NCBI RefSeq assembly: GCF_001315985.1
Contig: NZ_BBBI01000002.1
Coordinates: forward strand, 62,001-126,000
DNA from: Vulcanisaeta distributa JCM 11216
GTDB lineage: Archaea > Thermoproteota > Thermoprotei > Thermoproteales > Thermocladiaceae
DNA: 64,000 nucleotides
Reading direction: 5' to 3'
Of this stretch, positions 7,487-17,140 are shown one piece after another. Every line of letters starts with the position of its first letter. The first letter of the stretch is position 1. The notes beneath the pieces were generated by a model, which had not been told where the DNA came from, searched no databases, and saw only the letters and a program-made list of their open reading frames with translations. A program made the translations under genes and the position numbers.

Positions 7487-7690
7487 TTGACTAGTGAGCA
7501 CGAAACCCTTTATAAACCTATACCCCCAAAAGCCATTGTGGTTAAGATACTCGTAACAAACCAGCGCTATAGTTATGTGACTAAAGGCCTTAATTTAAAA
7601 ATCACCTCTTACTCCGATTCTCTCATTTTCTCAGTCCTCTTTGCATTAGTCTGTTTGGGTCTCTTTGTCTGTATTATGTCTTTGGATTAG
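7487..7690 (+). CDS. Possible small membrane-anchored protein
   Basis: Open frame of 67 codons with a polar N-terminal half and one C-terminal hydrophobic segment (LIFSVLFALVCLGLFVCI). I recognise no family. A TATA-like TTTATAAAC lies inside the frame at about 7510, which would favour a shorter product or a non-coding transcript. It precedes another hydrophobic ORF with a gap of only 8 nt. It could equally be chance coding potential. Confidence 0.3.
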   Translation: MTSEHETLYKPIPPKAIVVKILVTNQRYSYVTKGLNLKITSYSDSLIFSVLFALVCLGLFVCIMSLD

Positions 7691-7698
7691 GTGGTGAA

Positions 7699-7974
7699 TT
7701 GCGTATGGGTCTTTGGTCCTTAATACACGTACTATTAATTACAATAGTCCACGTACCATGTTTATACGTAGCGCCCTCAAAATCTCACTATCAACATAAG
7801 AGAGTTACAATGCTCTTTGACAGCCTAGGGCCTTTACGTAAATTGGCTTTTATTGTTATTTTAGGTTCGTGGGCCTTCTCCATAATTGCCCTAATTACGA
7901 ATTATATCGTGAGCTTTCTAGGTTTCTTTCTTCCTGTTAAGATCTCGATTATTGTCTTCGCGTCCACGAACTAA
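7699..7974 (+). CDS. Possible small integral membrane protein
   Basis: Open frame of 91 codons with three hydrophobic stretches: LIHVLLITIVHVPCLYV near the N-terminus, LAFIVILGSWAFSIIALI in the middle and IVSFLGFFLPVKISIIVFA at the end. No family recognised. It contains no G/C tract, unlike most genes in the window. The following 180 nt (7975-8155) are AT-rich with no gene that I can see. Confidence 0.35.
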   Translation: MRMGLWSLIHVLLITIVHVPCLYVAPSKSHYQHKRVTMLFDSLGPLRKLAFIVILGSWAFSIIALITNYIVSFLGFFLPVKISIIVFASTN

Positions 7975-8155
7975 ACAATCTCCCTACTCTTAAACTAAAG
8001 CCCTATTAAAATCTACAACATCTATACATAAACCCTCTAACAAACAAATCTAATAGATACATCAGCATAGATAAAGCATACGAGGACAGGTAAGGAGAAA
8101 GGAACAAAATAAAGACATTGCTGATTTTTATATTCAAATGCCAAAATAGTAAAAA

Positions 8156-8959
8156 CTATGTCTGGAAGTCTTGATACATGTCGCATGTGGTGTATTGGTT
8201 AAACATCTGCGTATACTGAACATTAGAATTCTCAGCAGTATTATTAGCGAGCGTACCCTGATATAGATTTACACCGGAGCAGTAATAGAACGTGCCAGAG
8301 CCACCGGAATTAAAAATTACATAAGAGACGTCAGCGCCGGCCCAAACAACATTAGATGGAAACCAATAATCCGAGTATTGAGATGGTATATTCCATACAT
8401 ATGTCCAAGGCCCATTCGTATTAGGTACTGACACCTGCTCATACACATACGAAATCATGCCATTACTATTCATACCATACAGGATATACCAAACAGCGCC
8501 AGAGACGAGAGCCCACGGTACATTTGATACCTCTCCAGGAATTTGTGGTTGCCAAATGAGGGCAGGATAAATCACACATGGGGGGGGTGGGACCCATATC
8601 TGTACAGTGAATAGTAACTCATTAGAATACGCATTGTATGCAATAATTCCCTGGACCCAGTATCCATTGCCTTGAGTACATACGAGATACTGATCTGGGT
8701 TGAACTGCAACGAAATCCAGCCATCATCATTTGGTCCGTAATACTGCACAGTCATAGTATTGACGATAACCGCGTGAACACTTACAAAGCTCGGCGTACC
8801 TGTGGTATCAACCTCATAATTACACCCACCGATAGGTTGTGAGCATGTGTTTTGCGCAACCACGCGTCCTGAGAATACCAACACTACCGTTAACATTATT
8901 AAGAGCGTTAATAAAGCAATAATTGTCACATTCAGGTTCTTCATCACCATGCTAATCAC
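8156..8959 (-). CDS. Secreted protein of unknown function
   Basis: 267 residues with a clear N-terminal signal or anchor (VTIIALLTLLIMLTVVLVF, then SGRVVAQ) and an extracellular part rich in Trp, Tyr, Asn and Gly (NDDGWISLQFNPDQYLV, GNGYWVQGIIAYN, WAGADVSYVIFNSGG). Cys residues early and late (CSQPIGGC, YYCSG, TTCD) could form disulfides. The overall look is that of a secreted beta-rich protein and is loosely reminiscent of thermopsin-like acid proteases, but no catalytic motif was identified. A run of eight G (8580-8587) encodes four prolines. Its ATG overlaps the stop of the upstream secreted-protein gene by 4 nt, so the two are co-transcribed. Confidence 0.6.
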   Translation of the reverse strand: MISMVMKNLNVTIIALLTLLIMLTVVLVFSGRVVAQNTCSQPIGGCNYEVDTTGTPSFVSVHAVIVNTMTVQYYGPNDDGWISLQFNPDQYLVCTQGNGYWVQGIIAYNAYSNELLFTVQIWVPPPPCVIYPALIWQPQIPGEVSNVPWALVSGAVWYILYGMNSNGMISYVYEQVSVPNTNGPWTYVWNIPSQYSDYWFPSNVVWAGADVSYVIFNSGGSGTFYYCSGVNLYQGTLANNTAENSNVQYTQMFNQYTTCDMYQDFQT

Positions 8960-9897
8960 CCGTTGGTGTTTATCTCATTTTTATTTGAGTAAATGACTGC
9001 GTAATTCGTAGGTAATGGGTACCAGATATACCCTATTATGTACTTTGGTGCTATGTTGCTTATCCCCCCCGGCGTTATGTCGTCCATGCTTATTGATTGC
9101 AGGTTTGTGATTGACTTTGTGATCACGTATATCGTGGGCTCCTCAATGATGTATTGGCCGTTTTCAAATAATTGCTTGGCCGTTGGTAAGGACTTACTCG
9201 TGCTTCCAAAGGTGCCGATCAAACCATACTTAACCATTAACTGGACCTCCTCGGCCTCGCTCGTGATGTTGCAGACCGGTAGTGCGTAGGGGACTGCGGA
9301 GTATAGGATCACCACTATGGTGTCACCTGGAGTGACGTTGATTGCGGGGAACCCAACGCCTATTCCCGTGTGTACCACGTACCAATTCTCCGTATTAGCG
9401 ATTTGCCAGAAGTTCATGGTTTTATTACCGTAAACGTATGGATGATTGACCGTTATGGCCAATGCCTGCAGTGGCTGTGATTGATTATTTGAGGCTATTA
9501 ACCTGCCGTTCAGGTATATGCCAAGCCACATGGCATTGCCTGAATATGACATGCTGGCCCATGATGACAGCGTCTCATTTATTATGGCGGTTGGGAAGTC
9601 AATGTATAATTCATAACCATTAATCTTCATATCCCCATGAACATGGTATACAAGGGCTATTGCCGAGCCACCGGGCATGATGAGGTCATAAGAAGAATTA
9701 CACCAGATAGCACCGTATTGGATTATGATTGGCATTATGGTTGGCGGATGCTCAATTGATTGACCCACGTGAGAGGGACTCACGGAGCCGGAACCACCGA
9801 TATGCCAAGTACTACGCACGACAAGCAAGGATACAACCACAGCCACCATAACCAACACAGCCACTAACCACCCCACCCTCAAACCCATAATAATCAA
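8956..9897 (-). CDS. Secreted or membrane-anchored protein, operon partner of the 8156 gene
   Basis: About 310 residues. The N-terminus LVAVLVMVAVVVSLLVV is a signal-anchor; the rest is extracellular, with several NxS/T sites and aromatic-rich beta segments (GAIWCNSSYDLIMPGGSAIALVYH, here shortened: GNAMWLGIYLNGRLIAS; NFWQIANTENWYVVH). No family recognised. C7 at 9064-9070 adds a glycine. The ATG at about 9888 (MGLRVGW) is the likeliest start. It is followed with a 4-nt overlap by the second secreted-protein gene, so the two products may act together at the cell surface. Confidence 0.58.
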   Translation of the reverse strand: MIIMGLRVGWLVAVLVMVAVVVSLLVVRSTWHIGGSGSVSPSHVGQSIEHPPTIMPIIIQYGAIWCNSSYDLIMPGGSAIALVYHVHGDMKINGYELYIDFPTAIINETLSSWASMSYSGNAMWLGIYLNGRLIASNNQSQPLQALAITVNHPYVYGNKTMNFWQIANTENWYVVHTGIGVGFPAINVTPGDTIVVILYSAVPYALPVCNITSEAEEVQLMVKYGLIGTFGSTSKSLPTAKQLFENGQYIIEEPTIYVITKSITNLQSISMDDITPGGISNIAPKYIIGYIWYPLPTNYAVIYSNKNEINTNG

Positions 9898-10243
9898 TTC
9901 TTCTCATTTTATGGGACTTTTTTTTTACTTCGGGTGTTCAGAGAAAGTGAGTCGAGTGGGTTTAGATGGGCTTTATGGTTGAGGGTTTCTGCTTGAACGT
10001 TGTTTTTGGCTGAGTTAGTACCTATGGGTTAGACTGAGCATTTGGCAATGATTAATGGACGAAACTAATCATTAATCGGCATGGACGTGCATTGCCAATC
10101 AATTATTCTTAATTCAGAATTGCGTTTATTCACCTACCAGCCTTACCAAACAACTTTCCTCAATCATTCGACTATTAATTAAAGATTGCCCAAGACTACC
10201 CTTAAATACTCAGCAGTTAAAATAATTAGTTAGTTAGAAGGTG
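9898..10243. other. Intergenic region with a small promoter
   Basis: About 350 nt without a gene. It holds the nested inverted repeat at 10042-10098 (listed separately) and, at its right end, CTTAAATA (10201-10208), a TATA-like box about 26 nt before roughly 10230 that could drive the small ORF at 10244. Nothing else was recognised. Confidence 0.5.
10042..10098. repeat. Nested inverted repeats
   Basis: TTGGCAATG (10042-10050) pairs with CATTGCCAA (10090-10098). Immediately inside, ATTAATG (10051-10057) pairs with CATTAAT (10070-10076). The two stems leave a short unpaired 13-nt segment on the right, so the element can form a branched hairpin. It lies at the left edge of the accessory island and could be an operator, a terminator or a relic of a small mobile element. 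Confidence 0.45.
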
Positions 10244-10447
10244 ATGAGCCCCCCCTGAGCAAACCACCCGGTGTAGCCGGGGGGGCGGATGCTCGGTGGG
10301 TGATCCAACCTGCCCGGCCCCCCCGTGGGTAGTGCCTAGGCGAGAGTATTGACTTTGTAAAATGCGTATGCGGTAATTACCTAAAGGGTGATGGCAATAA
10401 TAGCGGTAGCACCGGCACTGGTGCTAATGGAAGCAATAACAATTAAA
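10244..10447 (+). pseudogene. Small gene interrupted by an in-frame TAG and a C tract
   Basis: From the ATG at 10244 (preceded by AGAAGGTG), if the C7 run at 10249-10255 is read as five C, one frame gives MSPLSKPPGVAGADARWVIQ and RPRG, then TAG, then CLGESIDFVKCVCGNYLKGD and a Gly/Asn/Ser tail to TAA at 10447. The tail composition and the CVCG pair suggest a real small protein. The TAG at about 10328-10330 lies outside any homopolymer and has no downstream-shift rescue that I found. The same DNA can form paired G7/C7 stems (10279-10285 with 10318-10324), so an RNA role is the alternative. Confidence 0.35.
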
Positions 10448-10480
10448 TAACTTAGCCAATCAATCGCCTAAACGCTCACC

Positions 10481-10733
10481 GCCCTCCCTGCCTCTCTTCA
10501 TCCTCCTCCTCCCCCCCCTCTCCTTTGTGAGCAAGGAGCCGTGGGCCCTCCTCGTGAGGGGGGCTCCCGGCTCATGAGGGGGTGCTGTGGGGGGCTTGGG
10601 ATCCACGAGCACCGGGATTCCGATGGTGTCGGGGGGGGTGTCGTTCCTCGGCTGGTGATGGGGGGGCTTGGGATCCAAAGAACCAACCGAGGAAACGACG
10701 GGAGGGCAGGTGAAGAGGGGGGGTAGGGAGGGC
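10481..10733 (+). ncRNA. Candidate large structured RNA with two matching loops
   Basis: The ends pair: GCCCTCCCT (10481-10489) with AGGGAGGGC (10725-10733), extended by CTCTTC (10494-10499) with GAAGAG (10712-10717). Inside are a GAGCCG/CGGCTC hairpin (about 10536-10572), a hairpin GTGCTGTGG/CCACGAGCAC (10582-10590 with 10603-10612) and a long stem TCGTTCCTCGGCTGGT with its near complement (10641-10656 with 10682-10698). The last two each present GGGGCTTGGGATCC in the loop region. A TATA-like AATTAAATA (10441-10449) lies about 26 nt before a start near 10473. No SRP, RNase P, C/D or rRNA signature was found, so function is unknown. Minus-strand proline-rich frames here look like by-products of G runs. 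Confidence 0.5.
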
Positions 10734-10988
10734 ATTGCCCGAGCAACAAAAACAATAAGCTAGCAAGACATCCAGCAGTCCCTAGGCAAAAACAACCAAA
10801 ATCCTATGAATCACGGGAAAATAAAGAATGTTGTTCAAGCAATTGCTGAAACAAGCGATCAATGGGAAAAATGAGGAACGTAGGAAATTAGTGAGCAGAC
10901 TCTAGGGCTTTGTTGGGTAGGTTTTGCCTAGCCCATGGGGTGGGTCTTCCGTGGGGGGGCGCCAACCATTACCGGGAGGGTGGTACGG
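10734..10988. other. Intergenic, no gene recognised
   Basis: About 250 nt between the candidate RNA and the GC hairpin. It contains A-rich sequence (10742-10880) and then G-rich sequence from 10935 that is open in one frame into the next gene but resembles nothing I know. I see no promoter of good quality and no RNA signature. Confidence 0.4.
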
Positions 10989-11019
10989 CCCCCACGGGGG
11001 GGACCCGCCCCCGTGGGGG
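10989..11019. repeat. Perfect 12-bp GC hairpin upstream of the PaREP2-like gene
   Basis: CCCCCACGGGGG (10989-11000) and CCCCCGTGGGGG (11008-11019) are exact reverse complements separated by 7 nt. The hairpin lies 25 nt before the ATG at 11044 and is flanked by further G7 runs (10953-10959, 11028-11034). It could be a transcription terminator for the island to the left, a translational block, or a recognition structure for element mobility. Confidence 0.6.
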
Positions 11020-11043
11020 GGTTAAGTGGGGGGGTGAATCAAA

Positions 11044-12729
11044 ATGACGAGGAAAGACAAGCCAAAAAAGACCCTGCCCAGGGAGGGCAGGGATCAAAAA
11101 CAAAAAGAGGCAGGGAGGGCTGTGGGTGAGGAGGTAAGGGTGCCGGAGGCGATGGATATTTGCAGTGGTGTTAGGAGGGGGGGTAGGCGCCTGGTGTGTG
11201 GAGGGCCTGTCACGGATCCGGTGGTGAGGGCTGAGGTAATTGACTTACTAAACGAGGCCATGAAACGACTAATCAGGTGGAGAGTTTGGGATGCGCAATG
11301 GATAGATGAAATGCATGTGAAGAATATGGAGAGGGCCAAGGAAGCACTAAGGCAGTTAGAGGGCAAGTACCCAAGGGAAGTAATTGAGGTCATCGAGGGA
11401 ATAATCGACGCATTACTAAACCACGTGAAAAACAGACTAAAGAAGTACTGGATAAACAACGTTAGCGAGGATGTCAAGAGGCTGATCAGGAAAATAACGA
11501 ACGGAGGTGCTAAAGTCATAATAAACAAGACCGATAAGTCGTTGACTGTGCATGTATACGGGAATCATGTTGAGCTAAATGTTAATAGTATTTTTAGGAG
11601 CAATAGCGTGATTGTTCAATTAATACTTAGAGACTTAGGTGGTTTTCACATTAACGTACCTGATGTGCTTAATGACTTAATGAGTAATGAGGAGTACGTG
11701 AAGTTGATTGAGAATGTTGTTAAATCAATGAGGGGGGGGTGGGTTTGCTGTTACAGATGAGGGTAGGGATAGGCATGGCAATAGACCGGTGATGAGTACC
11801 ACGCAGCTATGGCAAGTGATTTTATGGTTGTTATTATATCCAGCGAGTCTCATGCCTATATTAATGCCGTTAACGTAAATAAGAGCGATGTCGCGATTAA
11901 GTGGAAATTAAGGGCTAGGTGCTGTTATTCAATAAAGCGGTGTGCGTTAAGTGACGCGTTAAAATATGATGATGGAGCATTCCTAACCTTTATTTTAGCT
12001 ATTATACTAGGTGATGGCGATGTCACGCTTTCATGGCGTAGCAATTCCGTTGAACCTATAGTTAAATTTACAATAAATGCCGAGGAGTTTGAAAAGAGTG
12101 AGGAATGGAAACAAATCCTTAATAGGCTTGAGCTACTTGGCATTATGTGGAGTAAGGATGATACTAGACGGGATAGGGTCGTCATTGTAATAAGAAGTAG
12201 TTATGCCATTAATTTAGTTAGGAAAATAATTGAAGCTTTGCCACCTGTGATTAATGCTTTATTTGACGTTTTAGAAGCTTTAGGTTTCGAGAAGTGGAGT
12301 AAGATTAAGGAGGTTGCTAATACGGAGCTGCGCTTTAAAACCGGTGTTTGGCAGGTCGAAATAGGTGGTGTGAAGTTTAGCATAAGTATCCCACATTCTT
12401 ATGCCCTTGTATTAAGGGTTAAGAGGTGTGATCCTATTGAGGCTCAAAGGATCATAGACCGTATAAGGATGATTTACGGTGAAGACTTCGAAATCAAGAC
12501 TAGAAGGAACAATAAAGGATGCATAGAAATTAAAATACCCTGGAACGAAATTAAGAGGCGCGATGATATTAAGAAAGTAATAAAGATGAAGCTTTGTGAG
12601 GTACTAGCACTAGGTGAGGTAAAGAACGAAGATATGCGTGTAAAAATGACAAACCTCCTTCAAAAACTCGCCCAGACACCCACAGAGGGGGGTCGGGCAG
12701 GTAAATCCAGTTACGCCTTACCTTGCTGA
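11044..12729 (+). CDS. PaREP2b-like repeat-family protein, frame-broken
   Basis: One reading frame reconstructed from two parts (about 560 codons). The charged N-terminus (DKPKKTLPREGRDQKQKE) leads into helices (EVIDLLNEAMKRLIRW, KEALRQLEGKYPREVIEVI) and then an alpha/beta region. The central junction, broken at G8 11732-11739 and near 11845, reads GFAVTDEGRDRHGN, STTQLWQVILW, SESHAYINAVNVNKSD. The segment FLTFILAIILGDGDVTL resembles a LAGLIDADG-type helix of homing-endonuclease-like folds. Multi-copy, frequently degraded PaREP2b proteins are known in Pyrobaculum; assignment here is by overall resemblance and is moderate. The reading frame ends exactly where SurE homology begins. Confidence 0.5.
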
Positions 12730-13434
12730 AAGTCGGCCTCTGGTCTTGGCATAACCCTTCATAAGCCGCTTAGGGTCTCGGTAATGGACCTTTGCGGCTT
12801 TAAGGTGTATGCGACTTCGGGTACTCCGTCTGACACGATATACTTGGCGGCCCTGGAGATAACGGGTAATGTGGACCTTGTCCTCTCCGGCATAAACATT
12901 GGTGACAACACCTCAATGCAGGTAATACTATCGTCGGGTACTCTCGGTGCCGCCTTTCAAGCGGCGCTGCTTGGTATTCCGGCTATTGCGTATTCTGTTG
13001 ATGTTGAGAGCGGTGATGAGCTTGAGGGTAATGAGGAGCTTGAGCCGTGCTTAGGGCTATAATTAGGGAGTCGGCATTGTTCGTGCTTAGGCATGGCATG
13101 CCTAGGGGGTGTTGATGTGATTAGTATAAACTTCCCGAGGACCGTTAGTAGGGATATTAGGGTTAAGCTTGTTAGGGCTTCGAAGCTTAAGTTCTCCGAG
13201 AAGATTGATGTTAGGGTTGACCCGCGTGGAGGTAAGTACTACTGGTTGTTTGGTTCGTTGCTTGAGCCTGAGGAGAATACGGACACCTACGTGGTTCATA
13301 AGGAGGGTAACATTGCGCTTACGCCGTTGACCTTGGACATGAATGCCATGGGTCCGCGGCAAGAGGTCGATATGGACAGCCTTAATAGGCTTGTTGACGT
13401 ATTAAACACGGCATTGATTCGTTTCCGAGGTTAA
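12730..13434 (+). pseudogene. surE: 5'-truncated surE (survival protein E nucleotidase)
   Basis: SurE is a metal-dependent 5'/3'-nucleotidase. From the codon after the TGA at 12727-12729 the frame reads [63 protein letters not shown] and later GVDVISINFPR, very like the Pyrobaculum enzyme. The first 40 or so residues, which hold the metal-binding NDDG motif, are missing, and there is no start codon before position 12784. Two compensating indels (near 13045 and 13110) scramble the segment [18 protein letters not shown]. With the catalytic aspartates gone it should be inactive unless the 5' part exists elsewhere. Confidence 0.8.
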
Positions 13435-13477: not shown

Positions 13478-14071
13478 ATGAACGGTCATCAAATACTATA
13501 TTTCGATGAGGTAAAGAGGGGTAATTACATGGCGTTTGTGAATCACGTACTTGAGCAAGTACCGGTTGCCTATAGGGTGGGTGCAGTCGACGTAGAGGTG
13601 ATCAATAAGTATAGGGATGAGCTGCTTGGTATTACTGATGAGTTGAGTGAGGCTTACTGTACGGCTATGTCAACAACTAATACAGACTTCTTTAAGGGAA
13701 GTGATTGCATAGGGTTTATTAAGCAGTATTGGCGTGATTTCATCATTGGCATTGATAGGAATGAGCATTGGGTTAATATGATTATGTACATGCTCAAGCT
13801 GTTTAGTGCTAATGTGGGTGTAACCGCGCTGGTAACCTTACCAATACAATTGAGTTCATTGGCTGTATCAATAATTAGCGGTGAGAATAAGCCGGTGACT
13901 CAGTTGGTGAATTCCCTTGGAAAGCTCTCGGCATTGACGACAGCCTTCTACGCGGAGGCGCTGGTTCACTTACTGACGGAGAATGTTGGTGTGCCGCTAA
14001 GTGCCTATATGATGCTTGCTGGAGGGCTCGTAAGTGAATTACTGAGGGTCTATGGCAATGCCATTGCGTGA
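13478..14071 (+). CDS. Conserved-looking helical protein of unknown function
   Basis: 197 residues without a recognisable family. The N-terminus carries FDEVKRGNYMAFVNHVLEQV; the middle is helical with YWRDFIIGIDRNEHWVNMI; the C-terminal third is hydrophobic or amphipathic (LVTLPIQLSSLAVSIIS, LTTAFYAEALVHLLTE, LSAYMMLAGGLVSELLRV). This could be a helical-bundle sensor or a weakly membrane-associated protein. It has an intact frame and no G/C tract. Its stop overlaps the promoter of ileS. Confidence 0.6.
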   Translation: MNGHQILYFDEVKRGNYMAFVNHVLEQVPVAYRVGAVDVEVINKYRDELLGITDELSEAYCTAMSTTNTDFFKGSDCIGFIKQYWRDFIIGIDRNEHWVNMIMYMLKLFSANVGVTALVTLPIQLSSLAVSIISGENKPVTQLVNSLGKLSALTTAFYAEALVHLLTENVGVPLSAYMMLAGGLVSELLRVYGNAIA

Positions 14072-14103
14072 AATTTTTAAATACTCAATATAGTCTATGG
14101 TGG

Positions 14104-17100
14104 GTGTCCGTTATTGATTCACGATTCACACTGGAGATTCAGTTCGATGTGAAAAGGATTGAGGAGGTTGTTAGGCAGTATTGGCGTGAGGCGAACATTG
14201 AGGGTAAGTGGCATGAAGGCCCTGAAAACGCCAATAAGTGGTATACATTCCTCGAGGGGGGGCCACCAACGACTAACGGCTTCCCGCATGTTGGTCATAT
14301 TAGGGGGGGTAGGACGTATAAGGACGTTGTCCTTAGGTACCATAGGCTGCTTGGTTATAGGGTTTGGGCTCAGGGTGGTTGGGATGAGCAGGGCTTGCCT
14401 GTGGAGATCGAGGTCGAGAAGAAGCTTGGGCTCAGGACTAAGAAGGATATTGAGAAGGTTGGTTATGAGAAGTTCAGTCTTGAGTGTAATTCGCTTGTTG
14501 ATTACTACCTTGAGAGGTGGAGGGAGGTTGGTACGAGGAGGCTTGGTCTATGGTTAGACCTTGATAAGGCCTATGAGACTAGGAAGCCATACTACATAGA
14601 GCACGTCTGGTCCTTCCTAAAGAATGCCTGGGAGAAGGGATTGCTATTCGAGGACTATAGAGTGTTACCATTCTGTCCAAGGTGTGAGACGGCTCTCAGT
14701 GATGCTGAGGTTGACCAGGGCTATGAGGATAGGGAGGATCCGTCAATATACGTTAAATTCCCCGTTGAGGGTTCAAGTAATACTTACTTAGTTATTTGGA
14801 CCACAACTCCCTGGACGCTAATTGATAATGAGGCTGTGGCCGTTAATCCCAACTTTAACTACGCATTGGTTAAGGCCAATATTAATAACGCTACGGAGTA
14901 CCTATGGCTCGCCGAGCCCCTTGTACCCAAGTTGATGGAGAAATTTGGAGTTAAGGATTATGAAATTGTTAGGGTTGTTAAGGGTTCGGAATTGGCTGGG
15001 ACCAGGTATGGGCACATTTACATGGGGGGGAAGGTGCCAATACATGCTAGCCACATTGATAGGGCTCATTACGTGGTTCTTGCGGACTTCGTAACGCTTG
15101 AGGAGGGTACTGGGCTTGTTCACATAGCCCCTGCCCACGGCCCTGAGGACTTTGAGGTTGCTAAGAAGTATGGTTTGCCTATTACTAATTCCGTGGAAAT
15201 TAACGGCATATTTAATGAGAACGGTGGTGAGTTTAGGGGGCAAGTACTGGCTTGATGTTTCCCAGGAAGTAATTAAAGACCTGAAGGAGAGGGGCTTATT
15301 ACTTCGTTACGAGACAATAGTACATGCATACCCACACTGTTGGAGGTGCGGTACACCGTTGATTTATAGGTCTGATAGGCAGTGGTTCATTAGGGTGTCC
15401 GCATATAGGGATAAGCTGGTTGAGGAGCTTAGGAAGGTGAAGATATACCCGGACTTCCTTAGGGATAGTTTGATAATTGGGTTGCGAATGCCAGGGATTG
15501 GACGATATCGAGGAGTAGGGTCTGGGGGGGTACGCCACTGCCTGTCTGGCGTTGTAAGGATGACCCAAGCAAGATTCTAGTAATAGGTTCCCTGGATGAG
15601 TTGAGGAAGTACGCCAAGTTCATACCTAATGTACCGAGTGAGATGCTTGTTCATAGGCCTTGGATTGACATGGTGAAAATAGAGACTGAGGACTGTAGGG
15701 AGTGGGTTAGGGAGCCATTCGTTGTGGATGTTTGGATGGATAGCGGCGTTGCTGGATAGCCAGTGTTGATGGTCTTAGGAATAAGGAGTTGTTTGATAGG
15801 TTATATCCGTATGACTGGGTTACGGAGGCGATAGATCAGACGAGGGGGGGTTGGTTCTACTCATTACTCGTTACCTCTGTCCTATGGATGGGTAGGGCGC
15901 CCTATAAGTCCATACTGATTAGTGGTCATGTTGTTGATAAGTACGGGCAGAAGATGAGTAAGTCCAAGGGCAACGTGGTTTGGGCTGAGGACCTATTCAA
16001 TAAGTGGGGGGGTGCTGACCCAACGAGGCTCTACCTACTTACTAAGTCCGCTCCCTGGGATACCATGTCCGTTGATCCCGACGAGATTGCTGAGGCCAGG
16101 AGTGTACTTTCAATACTTTGGAATGTGATTAAGTTCGCGGACACGTACATGACCCTTGACAGGTTTGACCCAGCGGTGCATAGGCTTGAGGGATTAATTG
16201 ATAAGGGGTTGATTGAGGATAGGTGGCTACTCAGTAGGTTCAATAGTAGGTTGCGTAGGTTCATTGATTATATGAACAACATGGAGCTTCACATGGCCGC
16301 CAGGGAGTGGGTTAGTCTCGTCGTTGATGACCTGAGCCATGGCTATATTAGGCTGATTAGGCGCAGGGTCTGGACTGAGGAGAGTAGGGAGGATAAGTAC
16401 GCAGCGTATGCGGTGCTTTACCACGTGATTAAGGGGGGGGCATTGATAATGGGTTCAGCCCTAGTGCCGCATATAACCGAGTATCTTTGGAACGCATTTG
16501 TTAGAAGGCTTGAGAAAAATGAAGCGGAGAGTGTGCACTTAACATTGCTACCTCAGGTGAATGAAAAGCATGTGGATGAAAAATTGGAGAAAGCCTTTGA
16601 TTTGCTATTTGCCATGTTCTCAGACATTGCGGAGATGAGGAATAGGATAAAGGTTAAGCTTAGGTGCCGTTAGCTAAGGCCGTAATTAGGGTTGAAAACG
16701 CCAACAACCTAGAAATGCTGGGACGAGTGAAGCACTTGCTTGAATACTTAGCCAATATTAAGGAGGTGGAGTTCGTTAACGAAATTGGCCAATGCAGTGA
16801 GGAGGAGTATGTCAGGGCTCAGGGAAGGGGTTACGAGATATGCCTCAGCAAGGTCATGGATAAGAAATTGTACTATGAGGCATTGGCCAGGGAGGTCGTG
16901 AGGCGCATACAGACCATGAGGGCTAAGGCCAACCTTAAGGTTGATGAGAGGATTAGGGTATACGTGAGTACGGGAAGTGATGACTTATTATCAGCCATTA
17001 AGGAGTTTATGGGTTACATAACGAATGAGGTCAGGGCAACGGATGTCATTGTTGGTAACGTGCCGGCAAACGCCTTCGCCATGGATTGGGACATTGAGGA

Positions 17101-17140
17101 CATGAGGGTTAGGATAGGGATAGAACGCATTACTCAATAA
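14104..17140 (+). CDS. ileS: Isoleucyl-tRNA synthetase
   Basis: Charges tRNA-Ile. The class I signatures are present: PHVGH (HIGH equivalent) near the N-terminus and KMSKSKGN after the editing domain, with the binding motif WDEQGLPVEIEVEK, zinc-type CPRC (LPFCPRCETALSD), and the C-terminal anticodon-binding and extension domains. A TATA box TTTTTAAATA (14073-14082) fits a leaderless GTG at 14104 rather than earlier in-frame codons. The frame breaks at G5 15236-15240 (four fit) and at single-base gaps near 15468, 15756 and 16666. G7 runs add glycines to near-invariant motifs: LEGGPP, IRGGRTY, RVWGGTPLPVW, DQTRGGWFYS, KWGGADP. The 3' end overlaps the convergent ASCH gene by 7 nt. Confidence 0.93.

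What the first reader, a model, noticed from the sequence alone, without database searches (positions are those of the whole stretch)
10481..10733. 253-nt RNA candidate with duplicated loop sequence
The segment has pairing ends, three internal hairpins, its own TATA box and two separate loops that both show GGGGCTTGGGATCC. Stem arms around the two loops differ, so the loop motif appears to be what is conserved. It matches no RNA class I know and lies in an accessory island.
Basis: partly seen in the sequence, partly recalled or inferred. Interest (0 to 1): 0.75.

Follow-up and report, generated by a model that had tools for sequence, protein, structure and literature searches.

The report
Twin-loop RNA in archaeal mobile intron
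A previously undescribed structured RNA sits inside selfish, intron-like DNA elements of the heat-loving archaeon Vulcanisaeta; each copy shows the same short "address" sequence on two separate loops, and that address differs from element to element, as one would expect of a targeting RNA, but nothing here shows what it targets.

Summary
In detail: window 10481-10733 (+) has closing arms, three hairpins and GGGGCTTGGGATCC in two loops. It is a real RNA family: 14 recognisable copies in six of 12 Vulcanisaeta genomes, a masked copy in a seventh, none found outside the genus, no Rfam match. Compensatory changes support the stems; G-U pairs far outnumber A-C, which fits RNA from this strand.

The loop sequence is the most variable part between copies, but both loops of one copy carry nearly the same sequence (mean edit distance 1.5 within, 6.1 between elements; 0 of 100,000 permutations). 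Loop type follows neither the RNA scaffold nor the neighbouring protein.

Wherever enough downstream DNA is held, an ORF with two LAGLIDADG-like motifs and a LAGLIDADG-like predicted fold follows. The element's ends pair in an element-specific way; in eight elements, window included, they form an archaeal bulge-helix-bulge splice motif. The window copy lies in a 5.2-kb insert that breaks surE.

Best reading: conserved RNA core of a LAGLIDADG, intron-like mobile element that presents an exchangeable specificity sequence twice, probably for base-pairing. No partner was found in the element, its ends, two empty sites or (two loop types) the host genome. Guide function is inferred.

The parts
10481..10733 (+). 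Twin-loop RNA (whole), closed by stem P1
   Evidence: fold and z-score; homologues; closing stem in the fold of each relative drawn
10536..10573 (+). Hairpin P2
   Evidence: hand pairing in 12 copies: lower stem 67 of 67 pairs Watson-Crick; upper stem 74 Watson-Crick, 28 G-U, 2 A-C, 1 other
10581..10613 (+). Hairpin P3 with variable loop 1
   Evidence: stem GGUGCU/AGCACC against GGGGCU/AGCCCC in relatives
10591..10604 (+). Loop copy 1, GGGGCTTGGGATCC
10640..10699 (+). Hairpin P4 with variable loop 2
   Evidence: lower stem GUCGUU/AACGAC against GCCGCC/GGCGGC, GCCUC/GAGGC, GCCGU/ACGGC
10663..10676 (+). Loop copy 2, GGGGCTTGGGATCC
10201..10211 (+). TATA-like box of the conserved promoter (inferred)
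   Evidence: a TATA-like box recurs upstream of the leader in the listed copies
10241..10307 (+). Short structured leader repeat (SR), GAUGAG...UGAUCCA; presumed 5' exon
   Evidence: same leader in the listed elements, and before other genes of the large elements
10308..10334 (+). 5' half of the bulge-helix-bulge: helix strand, GUGG, bulge GUA, GUG
10759..10916 (+). Second conserved, probably structured domain downstream of the RNA
   Evidence: aligned in relatives; structure only inspected by eye
10933..11026 (+). GC-rich third domain before the LAGLIDADG ORF
   Evidence: seen by eye in relatives
11044..11760 (+). LAGLIDADG ORF, N-terminal piece (frameshift at a G8 run near its end)
   Evidence: alignment A2; one gene in relatives, read through with stops in the window copy
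11809..12729 (+). LAGLIDADG ORF, C-terminal piece with motif IILGDGD
   Evidence: A2; fold of a homologue
12677..12702 (+). 3' half of the bulge-helix-bulge: CAC, CCAC, bulge AGA, helix strand
7562..12729 (.). Whole insert in surE; about 90 bp of surE missing
   Evidence: comparison with G008, G010 and G007

Best explanation
The segment is the conserved RNA core of a LAGLIDADG-encoding, intron-like mobile element of Vulcanisaeta. Inferred course: transcription starts near the SR leader; the element's two ends pair into a bulge-helix-bulge, where the host's tRNA-splicing endonuclease would cut out a roughly 2-3 kb RNA holding the twin-loop RNA and the LAGLIDADG reading frame. The protein, a homing-endonuclease or maturase type by fold, would work with this RNA. 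The RNA is a fixed scaffold (P1-P4) that shows one short, exchangeable specificity sequence of about 8-12 nt on two hairpins. Both copies must match, most likely because both base-pair with the same or nearly the same nucleic-acid sequence, for instance two DNA copies brought together in homing. Shown here: RNA family, covariation, twin loops, exchangeability of the loops, the protein's motifs, the end pairing. Inferred: transcription, splicing, complex formation, base-pairing and target.
For: Family of 14 recognisable copies in six genomes (a masked one in a seventh), only in the genus. Compensatory changes. G-U over A-C: 30 to 5 in the hand pairing, about 40 to 10 by my count of the table. 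Loops match within a copy, 0 of 100,000 permutations, also with one copy per loop type. Loop distance is unrelated to protein distance (rho 0.05, p 0.74) and to scaffold identity (rho -0.17, p 0.20): L004 and L010 have 97% identical scaffolds and the same loops but 28% identical proteins, while pairs with 50-53% identical proteins have different loops. This speaks for interchangeable pairing specificity rather than protein recognition. A LAGLIDADG ORF follows in every copy with enough downstream DNA. Two LAGLIDADG-like motifs; nearly all of the 50 PDB matches listed for the model are homing endonucleases, with a LAGLIDADG maturase and WhiA among them. Bulge-helix-bulge of 3-nt bulge, 4-bp helix, 3-nt bulge in eight elements; end pairing -29.8 kcal/mol own against -15.7 foreign. 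Archaeal rRNA introns use this motif and often encode homing endonucleases (PMC4496867).
Against: No partner for the loops was found: no excess in the flanks, at the element ends or at two empty sites; the window's 14-mer has no other copy in its own genome, and the 12-mer GGACGATAGAYC none outside the RNA in the two genomes that use it; matches in the fetched DNA look like chance. No expression data. The bulge-helix-bulge was noticed after the inverted repeats were, is imperfect in L004 and L005, and no splicing was tested. Structure model confidence is moderate (best model pLDDT 75, the others 48-60) and Foldseek TM-scores are low. The elements are not in rRNA or tRNA genes. Most LAGLIDADG relatives have no such RNA.
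Confidence: 0.4

Rival explanations
1. The loops are a double protein-binding site: the RNA copies the two half-sites read by the two-fold LAGLIDADG protein and so represses or titrates it.
For: Two near-equal loops and a protein with two LAGLIDADG-like motifs; association in every copy that could be checked.
Against: Loop type does not follow the protein: rho 0.05; L004 and L010 share the RNA with 28% identical proteins.
Confidence: 0.2
2. Control RNA of the antisense or incompatibility type: the loops are recognition loops for an antisense transcript or for sibling elements, setting copy number or exclusion.
For: Element-specific loops on a common scaffold; both strands fold stably.
Against: Elements with the same loops live in one genome (window with L002; L004 with L010); strand bias in G-U pairs; no antisense promoter was sought.
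Confidence: 0.15
3. A processing or stability structure of the element's transcripts, with loops kept alike by gene conversion and no targeting role.
For: In the large elements the RNA directly follows a 212-aa-type ORF, like a 3' UTR.
Against: Stems of P3 and P4 differ while only the loops stay alike; conversion of about 12 nt again and again without selection is unlikely (inference).
Confidence: 0.15
4. The two loops pair with each other (kissing loops) and are alike because the pairing sequence is self-complementary.
For: GGAUCC in the window and GACGCGUC in L069 are palindromes.
Against: Palindromes are not enriched (8 of 11 P4 loops against 7.1 in shuffles, p 0.42); L003 and L033 have none; own P3-P4 duplex -10.0 against -8.9 foreign.
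Confidence: 0.05

Closest known systems
Archaeal bulge-helix-bulge introns with LAGLIDADG homing endonucleases (Thermoproteales rRNA introns)
   Same: Bulge-helix-bulge at the ends, LAGLIDADG reading frame inside, mobile, same archaeal order
   Different: Not inserted in rRNA or tRNA genes; brings its own pairing ends, leader and a large conserved RNA with twin variable loops
IS110-family bridge RNA
   Same: Structured RNA of a mobile element with two separate variable loops; there one loop pairs with target and one with donor DNA (PMC11208160)
   Different: Two loops near-identical here; LAGLIDADG protein in place of the IS110 recombinase; no paired target or donor found
TIGR-Tas guide RNAs
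   Same: RNA-guided DNA targeting in phage and parasitic bacteria (PMC12045711, abstract); short paired guides are recalled from memory
   Different: No guide array; other protein family; different RNA architecture
PaRep2b (PF07775) repeat proteins of Pyrobaculum
   Same: Multi-copy protein family in Thermoproteales, called a putative transposon in the P. oguniense genome paper (PMC3558965)
   Different: PF07775 has no match above its cut-off in the four Vulcanisaeta genomes searched

Membership tests
Archaeal bulge-helix-bulge intron | Two 3-nt bulges on opposite strands around a 4-bp helix at the ends | tested here: met
   eight elements including the window; L004 and L005 only approximately
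Archaeal bulge-helix-bulge intron | Interrupts an rRNA or tRNA gene | tested here: not met
   window insert in surE; the others checked lie in or beside protein genes
Archaeal bulge-helix-bulge intron | Spliced out of a transcript | not testable with these tools
   no RNA data
LAGLIDADG homing endonuclease | Two LAGLIDADG motifs with acidic residues, LAGLIDADG fold | tested here: met
   motifs GLxxTDGS and xxILGDG in alignment A2; model and Foldseek, moderate confidence
LAGLIDADG homing endonuclease | Match to library models of the family | tested here: not met
   no Pfam or NCBIfam hit over cut-off; only a weak PHROG LAGLIDADG hit, E 0.09
IS110 bridge RNA | IS110-type recombinase in the element | tested here: not met
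   no such protein among the element ORFs searched; the adjacent ORF has LAGLIDADG features
IS110 bridge RNA | Loops complementary to target and donor DNA | tested here: inconclusive
   no match above chance, but guides shorter than about 9 nt or split guides are not excluded
Any Rfam family | Score at or above the gathering threshold | tested here: not met
   whole window and eight related loci; none at E up to 0.5 in the eight loci
PaRep2b (PF07775) | Pfam cut-off 20.4 bits | tested here: not met
   no match over cut-off in G003, G007, G010, G004

The most novel reading that the evidence does not exclude
A LAGLIDADG protein is directed by a trans-acting RNA whose two loops each pair with one of two near-identical DNA sites, that is, an RNA-guided homing system unrelated to CRISPR, OMEGA or IS110, carried by a spliced, perhaps circular, archaeal intron.
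Probability: 0.2. Interest if true: 0.95.

Novelty: new variant of a known kind. Interest (0 to 1): 0.72.

Why it matters
Hypervariable twin loops that change together on a constant scaffold, independently of the protein, are what one expects of interchangeable targeting sequence, and here they go with a protein class believed to read DNA by itself. If the loops guide, homing endonucleases would gain an RNA-guided branch. If they do not, this is still a structured RNA family inside a new type of archaeal intron-like element, with relatives in complete genomes of cultured species, in which circular-RNA sequencing could decide quickly.

Tried and rejected
Known RNA families: none. Partner of the loops in cis: exact words within 6 kb at chance level, duplex energies own against foreign loops, leader and element ends, two empty sites, all negative. 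Partner elsewhere: 14-mer and 12-mer searches of the hosts' own genomes find only the loops; 13-nt matches in fetched DNA, including a Pyrobaculum-type tRNA intron beside a LAGLIDADG relative, are about what chance gives by my estimate. Kissing loops: not supported. PaRep2b identity of the protein: my first name for it (also in my notes), withdrawn. Viral contigs: pattern not found. The 212-aa upstream protein: mostly helical, low-confidence model, no fold match. My first reading of the paired ends as DNA-transposon inverted repeats was replaced by the bulge-helix-bulge reading; both remain possible.

Full report
1. What is there. Nothing in the window reaches an Rfam gathering score; low-threshold matches over this stretch are weak.

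2. Relatives. BLAST finds a second copy (84%) and a partial one in the window's own genome and further copies in four genomes of the same genus, with only 27-nt matches outside it. A covariance model finds 14 clear copies in six of the genus's 12 genomes, one of them a deleted copy without P4, plus two weak matches that overlap known copies on the other strand. A seventh genome has a copy masked by N behind the same upstream gene. Records in the named collection show the genus to be Vulcanisaeta (JCM 16159, JCM 14467); three actinobacterial hits in that scan are probably chance.

3. It is an RNA. Stems change on both sides and keep pairing: P3 GGUGCU/AGCACC to GGGGCU/AGCCCC; P4 base GUCGUU/AACGAC to GCCGCC/GGCGGC, GCCUC/GAGGC and others; P4 middle CCUCGG/CCGAGG to CCUGGG/CCCAGG and CCGCGGG/CCCGCGG (arms chosen by hand). 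On MAFFT alignments the covariation score is reached by 5 of 500 shuffles for P3 and 7 of 500 for the base of P4; 8 of the 34 RNAalifold pairs show changes on both sides. G-U pairs outnumber A-C 30 to 5 in the hand pairing and about 40 to 10 by my count of the table, as expected if the plus strand is the RNA. Thirteen copies fold below their shuffles (z -3.6 to -8.7 on the plus strand).

4. Twin loops. Each copy shows nearly the same 12-14 nt on P3 and P4: window GGGGCUUGGGAU twice, L005 and L013 GGACGAUAGA twice, L006 UCACUUGAU / UCAUUAGAU, L007 GCUUCGCGAU / GCUAGGCGAU, L012 GCAAUUAGA / GCAGUUAGA, L033 GCAGAUGAAA / GACGAUGAAA, L003 AGUAGGAUGGCU twice, L069 GAAGACGCGU / GAGGACGCGU; L063 is the least alike. 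Mean edit distance is 1.5 within and 6.1 between elements, with 0 of 100,000 permutations as good, also with one copy per loop type. The loops follow neither protein (rho 0.05) nor scaffold (rho -0.17). L004 and L010, in one genome, share a 95% identical stretch of 223 nt while their proteins are 28% identical: the RNA can be exchanged as a cassette.

5. Neighbours. In every copy with enough downstream DNA an ORF of about 450-650 aa follows (some are broken), with motifs GLxxTDGS and xxILGDG. It has no Pfam match over a cut-off and is not PaRep2b by Pfam, but the predicted fold of an L069-type protein matches homing endonucleases: E-DreI 1.2e-4, I-LtrI, I-DmoI, I-Tsp061I. The family is multi-copy in most genomes of the genus and reaches other genera of the order; most copies have no RNA nearby. 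Large elements also have a 212-aa-type ORF ending just before the RNA, a HerA-like ATPase and a helicase. A short leader after a TATA-like box precedes the RNA (in large elements the 212-aa-type ORF lies between) and also precedes other element genes.

6. Ends. Just after the leader and at the end of the LAGLIDADG ORF lie sequences that pair with each other in an element-specific way (window ACCUGCCCGGCCCCCC with GGGGGGUCGGGCAGGU; at least 24 bp in L069): -29.8 kcal/mol own, -15.7 foreign. In eight elements they form a helix, a 3-nt bulge (AGA or AAA) on the 3' strand, GUGG/CCAY, a 3-nt bulge (GUA or AGA) on the 5' strand, and a second helix (the string check failed for the L010 3' strand because that copy has one extra G, which leaves the pairing possible; the window, L007, L012 and L033 have 1-2 extra unpaired nt on the 5' strand, and L033's first helix is only partly paired in that register). 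This is the topology of archaeal introns, in which the motif is cut by the tRNA-splicing endonuclease and many introns encode homing endonucleases (PMC4496867). The 3'-end motif was not seen at RNA-less copies in a simple scan.

7. Insertions. The window insert breaks surE, which is intact in G008, G010 and G007; about 90 bp of host sequence are missing and no target duplication is seen. L070 is inserted between protein genes at a place that is empty in four other genomes. L069 adjoins a truncated aminotransferase gene.

8. Mechanism. Exchangeable loops on a fixed scaffold, doubled and kept alike, fit base-pairing specificity better than recognition by the adjacent protein. I therefore prefer a targeting role within a LAGLIDADG ribonucleoprotein of an intron-like element. 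Splicing, expression, binding and targeting are inferred. In the way it might work the nearest comparison is IS110 bridge RNA (PMC11208160); membership is not claimed, because the recombinase is missing and no paired targets were found.

9. Limits. G-run lengths in the window assembly are unreliable; 14 copies are a small sample from one genus; helix arms were chosen by hand; loop boundaries were set by eye; the bulge-helix-bulge reading came late and was not tested on a control set.

Noticed in passing
window 10241-10307 and L020, L021, L024: Leader repeat GAUGAG-hairpin-UGAUCCA directly downstream of TATA-like boxes, repeated before several genes of the large elements; no Rfam match. Looks like a family of structured 5' leaders.
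   Followed up: partly
L114, L116, L122, L132: RNA-less LAGLIDADG relatives lie close to the 3' ends of tRNA genes (Pyrobaculum-like genomes and Vulcanisaeta), as if inserted there.
   Followed up: partly
window 8156-9897 and L051 (G002:C3:126004-127797): The two exported-protein-like ORFs beside the RNA in the window are 93% identical to a pair in JCM 16159, where they lie on the other side of the element: a circular permutation of cargo and RNA module.
   Followed up: partly
window 10759-10916: Second conserved domain downstream of the RNA, with CAGCANNCCC/GGGNNUGCUG arms and purine-rich single strands; possibly another structured RNA.
   Followed up: no
window 14068-17140 (IleRS), 12784-13434 (surE), 11044-12729: Genes split by frameshifts, the last at a G8 run: probable sequencing or assembly errors.
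   Followed up: no
L021 (G003:C1:953000-969000) and L020: Large Vulcanisaeta element with HerA/TrwB-like ATPase, DEAD-like helicase and an 846-aa protein of long hydrophobic stretches, near tRNA-Met; possibly a DNA-transfer element.
   Followed up: no
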